5,357 nt of DNA from Thiomargarita sp. Lineage in GTDB: Bacteria > Pseudomonadota > Gammaproteobacteria > Beggiatoales > Beggiatoaceae. Shown piece by piece: positions 2,214 through 5,357 of this stretch; position 1 is the stretch's first letter, and every line of letters begins with the position of its first letter. A program made the translations under genes and the position numbers. The stretch spans positions 1 through 5,357 of the forward strand of contig JAUXCJ010000124.1 of the NCBI GenBank assembly GCA_030618965.1, given 5' to 3'. The notes under the pieces were generated by a model. The model did not search any database, had not been told where the DNA came from, and worked only from the letters and a program-made list of their open reading frames with translations.

Positions 2214-2948
2214 CTATTTATTAAATCTCATAATTTTTTTAAGCTTATCAAAACGTCCTTTTCCCTTGTTAAAATCAATTTCAGATTCAACCTCTGAAGA
2301 TAAAGTCAATAACAACATGTCCTCACTGAGTTCCGCAATTTCTTCACATTTTTCAAGGCTGACTCTACCCGTGGATATAAGATAAAAGTGGCCATTTTCA
2401 GTTGATGGCTCAAAATCCATCAAATAACGCGCACAGCGATTTCTATTAACTGGCGTAGAAGGCAAAATCAACTTATTCGATTGAATCGGGCTTAAACTCA
2501 AATCAGCTTGTTTATATAAGCTAGGCAATATCACGGTTTTTTCAGCTTCTTGTGCATATAAGGTTTCAGCGTAATCACTAAAATGTTGCTGATGAGGCTT
2601 ATAAGTTTTTTGAGAACAGAGTAATAAACTCGTTATTGATTCTAAGATATTTTCCTGCTCTTCTTTATCAAATTCTAAATAAAGCGTGTTATAAATCACT
2701 CTGTTTCCATGATCAAGGCGAGAACTGGGTAAGTCTCCAATTAATAAACCAACCGCTTGATCTTCAAGAAGTAAAGCCAATATAGGAGCTTCGCCACCCG
2801 CATCACGTAATGCGACTCGGTGCATATATTCCATTTGTTCAAATAATTGCAGTTCCCCCTGTTTAACTATCCAATCATAATCTTTCCTCGGATCAATTTC
2901 TCGCGTATGAACAGCAGCCCCTTGCCAATTAACTTGTTTTACTTTCAT
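2214..2948 (-). CDS. Unknown 244-residue partner protein of the GTPase operon
   Basis: I do not recognise the family with certainty. The protein is soluble, with no signal peptide or membrane segment. An N-terminal alpha/beta-looking region (about 1-110) contains LLLEDQAVGLLIGDLPSSR at 59-77, followed by the charged stretch DHGNRVIYNTLYLEF at 79-93, the most motif-like part of the protein. The C-terminal part has strands around HFYLISTGRV (187-196), a helix rich in Glu, and a basic tail (GKGRFDKLKKIMRFNK). No P-loop is visible. Its ATG overlaps the stop of the upstream GTPase gene as ATGA, and GAGG (2959-2962) lies ten bases upstream, so translation is coupled. It is probably an effector, adaptor or regulator of the GTPases. 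The motif region loosely recalls GTPase-associated proteins of bacterial conflict systems, from memory only. Confidence 0.75.
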   Translation of the reverse strand: MKVKQVNWQGAAVHTREIDPRKDYDWIVKQGELQLFEQMEYMHRVALRDAGGEAPILALLLEDQAVGLLIGDLPSSRLDHGNRVIYNTLYLEFDKEEQENILESITSLLLCSQKTYKPHQQHFSDYAETLYAQEAEKTVILPSLYKQADLSLSPIQSNKLILPSTPVNRNRCARYLMDFEPSTENGHFYLISTGRVSLEKCEEIAELSEDMLLLTLSSEVESEIDFNKGKGRFDKLKKIMRFNK

Positions 2949-3898
2949 TTTTTTGATACCTCAATCAGTGAAGCATTTCCATAAATTTTAAATGAGCGAT
3001 TACGGGCTTCCGCAAATTCGCTCAAGGCTTTTTGAAAAGCGACATTTTCATCTCGTAACCAGCGCATCAAACGGCTCAATTGAGTACGATGTTGATCATG
3101 TTGCAATAAGGCAAATGCCAGCGCATAGCGTAAAGCTTGATCAGTATTTTGAGGTCGAAATTCTAAATTAGGTTTCCTCACAAATATCAATTCATTATGT
3201 TTATTGTGATAATCAATATGAGTAAACTCCACGCAACCCAAAGTTTTGACAGGTATCAAAACCCCAGCAACATTATTTTGTTCTGAAAGCATATTGAGAA
3301 CAATTCTATAACGTTTTTCAAAGGCTGTTTCTAACTGGTTTCGACGGGTTTCATTTTTAAGCCACGCTTCACATTTAGTAATTACAAATAAAAGCAAATG
3401 ATCTCGTTTTTCATTTTTTAATGTAGGTACAAGCAGTTTATAAATTTGTATAGGATCATTTCGTTGAGCCAATAAAAAATCATCACCTTCGACTAAGACA
3501 GAGCCATCTATTACAATCATAATCACAAGAGATTCTTCTAGCTTATTTTGAAAATCCTTAAAATCATGATGATCACTATCCGTATCCGCATGTATTAAAC
3601 CGCCCGCAATATCATAAAAAACAAAATCCAGTTCCTTTTTACCTTTAAATAACATTTCAAATTTACGCTCAACAATACCAGCAGTACCCCTCAGTAAAGG
3701 CCCTGTGGGTGTAAAAGTCGGTTGCGTAATAATATTACTCAGCTTCAAATAAGCCTCTTGAAGATCATCAGCCGTATCTTTACTCGCCGCGAGTTCAAAA
3801 CCCGATTGCTTATCAAATTGATGATACATAGTTGCCAATAATGTCGTTTTACCCACACCATCTGGCCCTATCATCATCATAACTGTCCGATTTGGCAT
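2945..3898 (-). CDS. P-loop GTPase, TRAFAC-like, possible conflict-system type
   Basis: The 317-residue protein has a GTPase core near its start: P-loop GPDGVGKT (residues 11-18) after a hydrophobic strand, a conserved-looking TFTPTGPLL (61-69) in the switch I area, G3 motif DIAG (96-99) in VFYDIAGG, a VIDGS strand end (129-133), and G4 motif TKCE (174-177) in place of the usual NKxD or TKxD. A G5-like segment may be VKTLGC (217-222). The C-terminal 60 residues are helical and basic (HRTQLSRLMRWLRDENVAF). No membrane segment is visible, so it is cytoplasmic. The start is supported by AGGGG (3904-3908) five bases upstream of ATG. It lies nine bases after the large GTPase gene and overlaps the next gene by four bases. 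GTP specificity is likely but the Glu in G4 leaves doubt. The Double-GTPase (DO-GTPase) group is a candidate family. Confidence 0.8.
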   Translation of the reverse strand: MPNRTVMMMIGPDGVGKTTLLATMYHQFDKQSGFELAASKDTADDLQEAYLKLSNIITQPTFTPTGPLLRGTAGIVERKFEMLFKGKKELDFVFYDIAGGLIHADTDSDHHDFKDFQNKLEESLVIMIVIDGSVLVEGDDFLLAQRNDPIQIYKLLVPTLKNEKRDHLLLFVITKCEAWLKNETRRNQLETAFEKRYRIVLNMLSEQNNVAGVLIPVKTLGCVEFTHIDYHNKHNELIFVRKPNLEFRPQNTDQALRYALAFALLQHDQHRTQLSRLMRWLRDENVAFQKALSEFAEARNRSFKIYGNASLIEVSKK

Positions 3899-3907
3899 CT
3901 TTTCCCC

Positions 3908-5357
3908 TTAATAACTTGGAAACTCTGCCTGTACCTGTTTCGCACTTTTTAGTGCATCTTCAAGCGCGTTCCGCCACTGTTTGCGTAAAGCAATCTCTTG
4001 ATTAAACTGACTTAATTCTTCAGCCCAGAGAGTTTCCCTAATGGGATCAAGAAAACTTTGCCACTCTTCTTTCATACCTTTGGCTCTGACAAGACGATCT
4101 TTAATTTCTTCAACCAAAGCCAAAATTGCATTAGCTGGATCGGCTTGCATAGTTTCACCAAACTGCTTTCTCAATTGATAAATCGTTTGTTGATAATGAC
4201 TATCTAAGCCCCTTGCAATTTCTTCCGCTTTTTCCATAAAATTATCCCGTGTCGCATCTTGAGGCACAATGTCATCAATAGAATCGCTGCTATAAGTGTT
4301 TAGCAAGCCCATTTCCTCACGAACACGATAATGAAAATGGCTATGGTAAGAGAAATTAAATTTATGGATGTACTCAAAGGCTTTATAAATATTAGGATGT
4401 TCGACTTTATCCAATAGTTTTTGGAACTCTAAGATTATAGCGCGTGGATCAGTATCAGTTTCTGGTGGAGTGGGCAACATTTTTTGCAAGGATTTGGGGA
4501 AAACTCCGAGTAATACTTGTCGAAGCACTTCATTAATCTTGGTTTGCAAATAATTATCTAAATTGGTTGCCATGAACTCAGTCAAATAAGCACGTAAATA
4601 ATTCAGTTCTTCGCCAACAACGCCCTTCCAACCACTAGATTCTAAATAGTGTTCTGCCAAAGCCTCTTTAGTCGGAATCGGTGCAGTTTCCCTAGCAGCT
4701 TCGCAAATTTCCTCAACTTTCTGTTTAAATTCCTCACTAATCTTTAAAACATGTTGGACATCCAATACCAACTTTTCTAATCCTCTTATCAATTCCTTGA
4801 TAAATTTTTCGGACAATATCCGATATTTTCTTTCTCGCGTTAAATCGGCATTTCTGGTACTCAATCCGCTCAGACTGGGTGTAAAAAGCAAGGAAAGTGT
4901 TTCAGCCACAGAAGCCATTTTCTCTGCAAGAGCTTTGATATATTTCCTGTCTGTGCTTTCCAAATTGGTCTCAATATGTTGAAGCACGACGGAAAATACC
5001 TTATGTTCCACTTCAGCTGCATCAATACAATTCGCCGTCAAAATCCTAGGCGGACTATAAGTTTCAGGTGGCTGCTCTTTTAACAATTGCACCTGTTTGC
5101 GGTTAGAACCATCGTTTTTCTCATTTAAAACAATGAATAAACGATTAGCCAGCTCGACTTCCCTCACCGCATTATCAACTAAATCAAAAACACTATAATC
5201 AGCTTGTTCCCAATCCGTACCCAGTACATCGGGCGATTTTACAAAAATAACTGCATCCACTTCATGTTCCAATGAAGAAACCAATTTTTGCTCATGCCCT
5301 TGAGCCGCCTCTAATCCGGGTAAATCAACCAGACATAAACCGGTAACATCATGATTG
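3908..5357 (-). CDS. Large dynamin-like GTPase, 5'-partial (N-terminus beyond window)
   Basis: The frame is open to the window edge, giving 482 complete codons before TAA (3908-3910). The first ATG-like start inside, a TTG at 5282-5284, is not the real start. The 24 codons before it contain no stop and encode a G3 motif, VDLPG (residues 10-14), part of the GTPase core. EKND (79-82) fits G4 with Glu in the first position, and ILTANC (105-110) follows where G5 would be. The P-loop and switch I must lie off the window. The rest is predominantly charged helix without membrane segments, with a distinctive aromatic block FNFSYHSHFHYRVREEM (333-349), and ends in a Glu/Gln/Lys-rich helix. This GTPase head plus long helical stalk suggests the dynamin superfamily, which self-assembles on membranes or scaffolds. 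It is the most upstream gene visible of the three-gene operon; the operon promoter is not seen. Confidence 0.75.
   Translation of the reverse strand, partial: NHDVTGLCLVDLPGLEAAQGHEQKLVSSLEHEVDAVIFVKSPDVLGTDWEQADYSVFDLVDNAVREVELANRLFIVLNEKNDGSNRKQVQLLKEQPPETYSPPRILTANCIDAAEVEHKVFSVVLQHIETNLESTDRKYIKALAEKMASVAETLSLLFTPSLSGLSTRNADLTRERKYRILSEKFIKELIRGLEKLVLDVQHVLKISEEFKQKVEEICEAARETAPIPTKEALAEHYLESSGWKGVVGEELNYLRAYLTEFMATNLDNYLQTKINEVLRQVLLGVFPKSLQKMLPTPPETDTDPRAIILEFQKLLDKVEHPNIYKAFEYIHKFNFSYHSHFHYRVREEMGLLNTYSSDSIDDIVPQDATRDNFMEKAEEIARGLDSHYQQTIYQLRKQFGETMQADPANAILALVEEIKDRLVRAKGMKEEWQSFLDPIRETLWAEELSQFNQEIALRKQWRNALEDALKSAKQVQAEFPSY

What the first reader, a model, noticed from the sequence alone, without database searches (positions are those of the whole stretch)
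2214..5357. Three-gene operon: two different GTPases plus an unknown coupled partner
Seen: a dynamin-like GTPase with a long helical region, a second P-loop GTPase and a 244-residue unknown are packed with gaps of +9 and -4 bases, all on one strand. Known: paired GTPases with dedicated partner proteins occur in bacterial conflict systems, and dynamin-like proteins in membrane protection. Inference: this is one GTP-driven system, possibly defensive, with the small GTPase as switch and the third protein as effector or adaptor. Nothing in the window proves defence.
Basis: partly seen in the sequence, partly recalled or inferred. Interest (0 to 1): 0.7.

Follow-up and report, generated by a model that had tools for sequence, protein, structure and literature searches.

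The report
Mobile three-gene bacterial dynamin module
Three neighbouring genes, found side by side in giant sulfur bacteria and in members of six other bacterial phyla, encode a relative of the membrane-shaping protein dynamin, a second GTPase and an unnamed partner; their family trees largely match, so they are apparently passed on together, and they likely form one GTP-driven system that reshapes or protects the cell membrane under stress or attack.

Summary
On the minus strand a dynamin-like gene (cut by the contig end, about 256 N-terminal residues missing), a DO-GTPase2-like gene and a 244-residue unknown are packed with a 9-base gap and a 4-base overlap. The trio recurs. Of 38 dynamin loci found in GTDB genomes, 31 hold the GTPase on the same strand (29 adjacent), and a third gene follows in all 29 whose sequence runs past the GTPase, in seven phyla. 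Trees of the three proteins largely agree (distance correlations 0.85-0.91), also where they group different phyla, so the trio apparently moves as a unit. The third proteins form one family by profile comparison; 18 of 21 distant copies have a membrane segment. The window copy's model weakly resembles TagF and longin/roadblock proteins. Most GTPases share an unusual G4 motif (KCE). Most likely the partner and the GTPase control dynamin assembly on the membrane. Defence is possible (single fusions with LRAT or TerD domains) but unproven: only weak PADLOC matches and no clear defence-island context. I found no description of this trio in the papers searched.

The parts
3908..5357 (-). Gene 1: bacterial dynamin-like protein (BDLP/SynDLP/mitofusin type), 3' two thirds only; the contig end removes ~256 N-terminal residues with the P-loop
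   Evidence: ORF open at contig end; 94% identical to residues ~257-739 of the 739-aa protein of the same genus; Dynamin_N in the full-length relative; fold search of its model
5309..5326 (-). G3 motif DLPGLE of the dynamin-like protein
   Evidence: read; D, L, P, G and E invariant in 35 aligned relatives
3899..3907 (-). 9-base intergenic gap with ribosome-binding-like sequence before the GTPase start
2945..3898 (-). Gene 2: DO-GTPase2-like P-loop GTPase, 317 aa
   Evidence: PF19993 33.3 bits, cut-off 27; alignment A2
3845..3868 (-). P-loop (G1) GPDGVGKT of gene 2
3599..3613 (-). G3/Walker B DIAGG of gene 2, without the glutamate reported for DO-GTPases
3368..3379 (-). G4 position TKCE instead of N/TKxD; K, C and E invariant in 30 aligned relatives, KCE in 44 of 49 GTPases of the wider set
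2214..2948 (-). Gene 3: 244-aa partner of an unnamed family, overlapping gene 2 by 4 bases (ATGA)
   Evidence: no significant Pfam, NCBIfam or PADLOC match; 29 proteins at E 0.001, itself included; family extended to other phyla; model pLDDT 86.6
2871..2906 (-). Conserved block TR...DYDW of gene 3
2685..2729 (-). Conserved block S-R-x-D-H-x-x-R-x-I of gene 3, which hhalign sets against TagF PSVDxVGRYFPL at low probability

Best explanation
The three genes form one operon-like unit, conserved in order across seven phyla and apparently co-inherited, which likely works as a single GTP-driven membrane module: the third protein would act as partner or regulator of the DO-GTPase2-like GTPase, and this GTPase would license assembly of the dynamin-like protein on the membrane. 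Shown: gene order, conservation, largely matching trees, GTPase motifs in gene 2, and profile similarity that joins gene 3 across phyla. Predicted by computation: a dynamin-type model for gene 1, membrane segments in most distant copies of gene 3, and a fold of gene 3 weakly similar to TagF and to longin/roadblock domains. Inferred: the order of action (stress or invasion at the membrane, sensed through protein 3; GTPase switch; dynamin assembly that tethers, seals or deforms membrane). In giant sulfur bacteria protein 3 has no predicted membrane segment, so membrane contact would there come from the dynamin. The most likely use is protection of the envelope against damage or phage; which of the two is open.
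Confidence: 0.52

Rival explanations
1. Anti-phage or conflict system proper: protein 3 senses infection at the membrane, the GTPase sets a threshold and the dynamin (or a fused effector) seals, disrupts or kills.
For: Patchy spread and apparent joint transfer; plasmid copies; an LRAT domain fused to a third protein in L093 (E 7.9e-22) and AAA_35 fused to the Symploca dynamin of L074; a TerD-GTPase fusion whose contig length equals that of one with a dynamin and a GTPase; published DO-GTPases belong to predicted conflict systems (PMC7159879, passages). In the neighbour census the raw PADLOC count is higher than in the control: 127 families over 142 proteins against 55 over 106.
Against: Trio members have only weak, mostly P-loop-sized PADLOC matches (best E 1.7e-4, HEC-02A). 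The neighbour hits shown are largely redundant models such as kinases, at most 4 proteins per family in either set, so enrichment is not clear. The window's neighbours are a PrmB/PrmC-like methyltransferase and tRNA-Asn.
Confidence: 0.35
2. GTP-sensing signalling system like E. coli RdcA/RdcB: the dynamin and its partners dock on a membrane enzyme and switch it on, without remodelling membrane.
For: RdcA is a dynamin-like GTPase encoded with a partner, and directly activates the membrane-bound cyclase DgcE (PMC6510439, passages read); same gene order, dynamin first.
Against: RdcA aligns to the A1 profile over only 75 columns around the P-loop, probability 87.9; RdcB does not align to the third protein or the GTPase; no DO-GTPase is annotated next to rdcAB; no gene family recurs widely beside the trio.
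Confidence: 0.13
3. Housekeeping membrane or cell-division function of very large or filamentous cells (the window's relatives are giant sulfur bacteria, and other multicellular taxa have the trio).
For: Found in Thiomargarita, Parabeggiatoa, Thioploca, cyanobacteria and Actinobacteria.
Against: Also in Gluconobacter, a Treponema and gut or rumen Bacteroidales bins; the GTPase is in 11 of 25 genomes of the window's family, and the dynamin in 2 of 369 genomes drawn from the class.
Confidence: 0.12
4. Unrelated genes that happen to lie together in one genus.
For: Short operons can be accidental.
Against: Trio order kept in seven phyla and largely congruent trees.
Confidence: 0.02

Closest known systems
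DO-GTPase/GAP1 (GTPase-centric) predicted conflict systems, Kaur et al. 2020, PMC7159879 (passages read)
   Same: Gene 2 passes the DO-GTPase2 Pfam model; tandem GTPase copies occur (L068-L070, L086, L089, L092); membrane segments, scattered distribution, occasional fused domains
   Different: No GAP1 found; a dynamin is the usual partner (the word dynamin does not occur in that paper's main text); no Walker-B glutamate in the window; KCE at G4; no GASH, FNIII or zinc-ribbon match showed up in the Pfam scans of the trio proteins that I ran
Bacterial dynamin-like pairs (C. jejuni DLP1/2, SynDLP, BDLP; PMC6104087, passages read)
   Same: Gene 1 is of this fold family; operon with a second GTPase
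   Different: That paper says most bacterial dynamins exist as side-by-side dynamin pairs; here the partner is a small, non-dynamin GTPase plus a third protein
LeoABC / Eleos (PMC4159319, passages read; the name Eleos is recalled)
   Same: Dynamin-based three-gene locus
   Different: LeoB and LeoC are two parts of a second dynamin; no significant PADLOC LeoA/LeoBC match of the dynamin (E 0.017 and 0.41)
RdcA/RdcB (YjdA/YjcZ) of E. coli (PMC6510439, passages read)
   Same: Dynamin-like protein followed directly by a partner gene
   Different: Partner unrelated to gene 3 by profile; no DO-GTPase beside it; target is a cyclase
TagF (type VI secretion repressor; PMC10433429, passages read) and longin/roadblock GTPase partners such as MglB or Rag/Lst4
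   Same: Best, though weak, fold matches of the third model; hhalign sets TagF's PSVDxVGRYFPL on the third family's S-R-D-x-x-x-R-I block
   Different: No TagF_N Pfam match; profile probability at most 12.8; different operon

Membership tests
Bacterial dynamin-like proteins | Dynamin_N G domain | tested here: met
   Full-length same-genus relative 36.4 bits, cut-off 27; the truncated window copy alone scores 18.9
Bacterial dynamin-like proteins | G domain plus long helical neck/trunk in a dynamin arrangement | tested here: met
Bacterial dynamin-like proteins | GTP-dependent membrane binding and remodelling | not testable with these tools
   needs protein and liposomes
DO-GTPase family | Match to the DO-GTPase2 model PF19993 | tested here: met
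   Window 33.3 bits, cut-off 27. Relatives vary: L050, L056, L073 and first copy of L086 pass; L052, L082, P0123 and P0138 fall below; second copy of L086 and the L092 copy tested show no match at E 0.01
DO-GTPase family | Conserved glutamate in Walker B (as stated in PMC7159879) | tested here: not met
   Window reads DIAGG; no E in the six residues from D onward in 38 of 38 GTPases where the pattern was readable, of 49. A few others have E there (P0081, L122). The passage read gives no exact position, so the placing is mine
DO-GTPase/GAP1 conflict system | GAP1 protein encoded next to the DO-GTPase | tested here: not met
   No GAP1 match in the window proteins or ten distant third proteins; GAP1-N2 in 0 of 150 phylum genomes, own included, and in 2 of 20 genomes that carry the dynamin; hhalign of the third family to two GAP1-N2 sequences probability at most 0.23. 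GAP1-N1 was not searched in genomes
Eleos / LeoABC | Match to LeoA and LeoBC models | tested here: not met
   LeoA E 0.017 (L042 dynamin), LeoBC E 0.41 (window dynamin); a LeoA model matches the L052 GTPase at E 6e-4 over 41 P-loop residues only
RdcA/RdcB | Partner homologous to RdcB | tested here: not met
   hhalign probability 0.6
TagF | TagF_N sequence family (PF09867) | tested here: not met
   No Pfam match; hhalign probability 0.1-12.8 against 15 TagF sequences
TagF | TagF fold | tested here: inconclusive
Longin/roadblock GTPase partners | Longin/roadblock fold | tested here: inconclusive
Known anti-phage system | Match to a PADLOC model over the protein | tested here: inconclusive
   Only weak, mostly P-loop-sized hits; an undescribed system would give the same result

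The most novel reading that the evidence does not exclude
A mobile bacterial immune or membrane-repair system built on a dynamin that is switched by its own small GTPase and by a membrane-anchored TagF/longin-like regulator: a prokaryotic counterpart of the eukaryotic arrangement in which small GTPases and longin-type partners govern membrane-shaping machines, with exchangeable lipid-acting or sensor domains.
Probability: 0.3. Interest if true: 0.85.

Novelty: new variant of a known kind. Interest (0 to 1): 0.6.

Why it matters
Bacterial dynamins are described mostly as dynamin-dynamin pairs (PMC6104087, PMC4159319, passages read), and how they are controlled is, to my knowledge, largely open. 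A module that carries its own GTPase switch and membrane partner, conserved across phyla and apparently moving as a unit, offers a compact system in which dynamin control in bacteria can be tested. If protein 3 is truly longin- or roadblock-like, it would also bear on where the small-GTPase control of membrane machines in eukaryotes came from. If it protects against phage it would be a new dynamin-based defence type.

Tried and rejected
GAP1 as identity of gene 3: tested with Pfam, genome searches and hhalign, rejected at this sensitivity (one search used a wrong strand for one of the two GAP1 sequences and was redone). RdcB as identity of gene 3: rejected. TagF membership: fold lead only. Viral structure match for gene 3: none at E 0.001. 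Phage and viral copies of the dynamin: none in 50,697 phage records; 153 pattern stretches in IMG/VR, none confirmed. Solved relatives by sequence: none useful for genes 2 and 3. Defence-island test by PADLOC census with a control: not conclusive. Both censuses put unrelated proteins of 100 aa or more into one alignment so that many could be scanned in one call; A4 held 142 of 148 listed neighbours (six left out when I copied the list, one of them the L082 third gene), A5 all 106 control proteins, from 16 of 20 control stretches, since four contigs were too short; only the top 25 families are shown. Extra operon genes: among 353 neighbours compared, with seven duplicate loci left out, no family recurs in more than 6 loci; one component there is the third gene itself, which the strict filter had not removed (L087, L089, L090, L093). 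The contig-length test used 103 of the 120 listed GTPase clusters (17 not typed in) and all 120 listed dynamin clusters. Trees were FastTree, midpoint-rooted, one GTPase per locus, supports not inspected; the permutation does not correct for host phylogeny; G018:C349 and other draft-genome contigs could be binning contaminants. At least six of the 38 loci are records already fetched (L058, L059, L062, L065, L067, L071). ORF calls in high-GC Actinobacteria are rough; stop-to-stop frames were used there.
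Full report
What is in the window. The window is a whole 5357-base contig of a 2.07 Mb, 59.6% complete draft genome. Its closest named protein matches are Thiomargarita, Parabeggiatoa and Thioploca, that is, giant sulfur bacteria. On the minus strand lie a dynamin-like gene (5356-3908, open at the contig end), a P-loop GTPase (3898-2945) and a 244-residue unknown (2948-2214), with a 9-base gap and a 4-base ATGA overlap. To the left are a methyltransferase of the PrmB/PrmC type (430-1341, minus), tRNA-Asn (1477-1552, plus) and a small gene that reads like a lipoprotein (1838-2134, plus). 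The dynamin lacks about 256 N-terminal residues with its P-loop; the same-genus genome G001 has the full 739-residue protein.

Constraint. Window against G001: amino-acid identity 94.4%, 80.8% and 79.9% for genes 1, 2 and 3, with third codon positions changing most. All three look like real, selected genes.

Near relatives. In 40 related genomes the GTPase was found in 11, the dynamin in 10 and the third gene in 10, counting the window's own; all hits are in one family of 25 genomes, none in the 15 outside it. The three genes are adjacent in G001, G003, G013, G018 and G019, and in divergent form in G012:C87 and G018:C349. Not every genome keeps them together: in G009 dynamin and GTPase end at a contig end while the third gene lies inside another contig; in G023 the dynamin lies apart from the other two; G008 has a dynamin and, at a contig start, a GTPase elsewhere; G002 has GTPase and third gene but no dynamin found; G012:C67 has a lone dynamin. 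Of 369 genomes drawn from the class, 2 had the dynamin at E 1e-20, both of the window's family. The distribution is patchy.

Distant relatives. A profile of 35 dynamins (A1) found 38 loci in GTDB genomes, by record titles from Pseudomonadota, Desulfobacterota, Cyanobacteriota, Actinomycetota, Spirochaetota, Bacteroidota, Riflebacteria and a planctomycete, plus a short fragment labelled Oscillospiraceae. Profile searches of stop-to-stop frames place a GTPase of the same family on the same strand in 31 of 38, within 650 bases in 29 and after inserted genes in 2 (L074, L075); the other 7 are L065, L067, L071, L072, L076 and the contig-truncated L079 and L094. The planctomycete shows the dynamin only, so the trio itself is seen in seven phyla. 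GTPases come in tandem in L068-L070, L086, L089 and L092. In all 29 loci whose sequence runs beyond the GTPase a third gene follows: 14 by strict profile, 15 by position and an N-terminal signature read by eye, of which 7 were also reached by looser iteration. L060 and L063 end inside the GTPase. In L087, L090 and L093 the signature is weaker.

The third family. Window-type third proteins (A3) and the distant ones align as one family: strict iterative HMM search joins 26 frames, looser iteration 33. hhalign of the two groups gives probability 97.5 over 196 columns. Leaving out the distant members that the strict profile had already joined, it gives 94.9 over 208 columns; single distant groups alone give 27 (Actinobacteria, Gluconobacter and one spirochaete), 58 (Bacteroidales, Treponema and another spirochaete) and 90 (Symploca, G018:C349, Riflebacteria), while comparisons with the dynamin or GTPase profiles give at most 1.4. 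The signature is TR-x(n)-DY-x-W/F near the N-terminus and S-x-R-x-D-x(3)-R-x-I later. No Pfam, NCBIfam or PADLOC family fits convincingly. A simple hydropathy scan finds a membrane segment in 18 of 21 distant proteins (all but L073, L091 and L092 of L073-L093, L122 and L124), in 15 of them within 60 residues of the C-terminus; in 2 of the 3 L052 copies; not in L056; and in 0 of 18 short sulfur-bacterial and Desulfobacterial rows, 15 of them distinct. So anchoring is usual and is missing in the window's lineage.

The GTPase. It passes the DO-GTPase2 model; some relatives fall below its cut-off. Among 49 GTPase frames, KCE at the G4 place was found in 44 (not in L054, which is cut, nor L080, L085, L087, L091), and DxxGG at G3 in 36 of the 38 where the pattern was readable. 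PMC7159879 describes a conserved Walker-B glutamate in DO-GTPases; no E lies in that stretch in any of these 38, though P0081 and L122 have one. I take it for a separate branch near DO-GTPases.

One unit. Trees of 30 loci for the three proteins give distance correlations of 0.91, 0.85 and 0.87, against a maximum of 0.30 in 2000 permutations. Shared descent of the hosts explains part of this, but all three trees also put Gluconobacter, an alphaproteobacterium, with or next to Actinobacteria and Spirochaetes_133, put the G018:C349 copy with Symploca, and keep Spirochaetes_133 apart from the other two spirochaetes. Riflebacteria and the second Parabeggiatoa copy are placed differently in the three trees. 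The simplest reading is joint horizontal transfer. Ten of 72,556 plasmid records carry a related dynamin, one of them chromosome-sized. Of six inspected, three show the GTPase by profile (L122, L124, and L123 weakly) and three do not (L121, L125, L126); the Streptomyces plasmid L124 has the full trio by profile, and the conjugative Aulosira plasmid L122 has a similar third gene with a membrane segment not reached by the profile. No phage record or viral contig matched.

Hints of what it does. One third protein (L093) carries an LRAT domain (E 7.9e-22); LRAT-type enzymes act on phospholipids (recalled). The Symploca dynamin of L074 is fused to an AAA_35 ATPase. Each of these is a single case. 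Constant cores with variable effector domains mark predicted conflict systems (PMC7159879, passages read). Against defence: PADLOC matches of the trio are weak and mostly P-loop-sized. The neighbour census found more PADLOC families near the trio (127 over 142 proteins) than in control stretches (55 over 106), but the families shown are largely redundant models such as kinases and no family has more than 4 proteins in either set, so I count it as inconclusive. No other gene family recurs beside the trio in more than 6 loci.

Mechanism. I favour a membrane module: protein 3 at the membrane binds and regulates the GTPase, which licenses dynamin assembly that seals, tethers or deforms membrane when the envelope is attacked. 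The binding, the order of action and the trigger are inferred. A signalling role like RdcA/RdcB, where a dynamin-like GTPase and its partner activate a membrane enzyme (PMC6510439, passages read), is the main non-remodelling rival, but the proteins align only around the P-loop.

What is known. Published bacterial dynamins are mostly side-by-side dynamin pairs (PMC6104087 and PMC4159319, passages read). DO-GTPases are published with GAP1, and the word dynamin does not occur in that paper's main text; one paper notes a DO-GTPase beside psp genes (PMC11237479, passage read). Ten full-text searches of the held library listed no paper that, by title or abstract start, describes this trio; most papers of subscription journals and all bioRxiv preprints are missing from it, so this is not proof of novelty.

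Noticed in passing
L093:4363-6009: Third protein of a rumen Bacteroidales copy carries a C-terminal LRAT domain (PF04970, E 7.9e-22) after a membrane segment: a possible lipid-acting effector.
   Followed up: partly
   Followed up: partly
L074:8504-11998; L073 and L075: The Symploca dynamin of L074 carries an N-terminal AAA_35 ATPase; those of L073 and L075 are about as long but were not scanned. In L074 and L075 the GTPase lies 8.2 and 4.6 kb downstream of the dynamin.
   Followed up: partly
L052:4272-8555: Three tandem third-gene paralogues of 446-500 aa; at least two share the same C-terminal stretch, two have a membrane segment, and the GTPase there has N-terminal membrane segments.
   Followed up: no
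G000:C125 (L096): The window's own genome has a TagF_N gene (E 7.4e-45), rare among relatives (3 of 40), hinting at a type VI secretion locus.
   Followed up: no
G000:C260 (L001) and G000:C160 (L002): Two further dynamin-like matches in the same genome, one over and one under the family cut-off; whether they pair with GTPases was not checked.
   Followed up: no
window:1477-1591: tRNA-Asn followed by a terminator-like hairpin with a T run, beside a possible small lipoprotein gene at 1838-2134.
   Followed up: no
G002:C812:1727-2449 (L020, L044): In G002 the third-gene match contains one in-frame stop and no dynamin was found in that genome: possibly a decaying copy or an assembly fault.
   Followed up: no
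L063: A contig filed under a Bacteroidales bin carries a dynamin 73% identical to the sulfur-bacterial one: probably a misbinned sulfur-bacterial contig.
   Followed up: no
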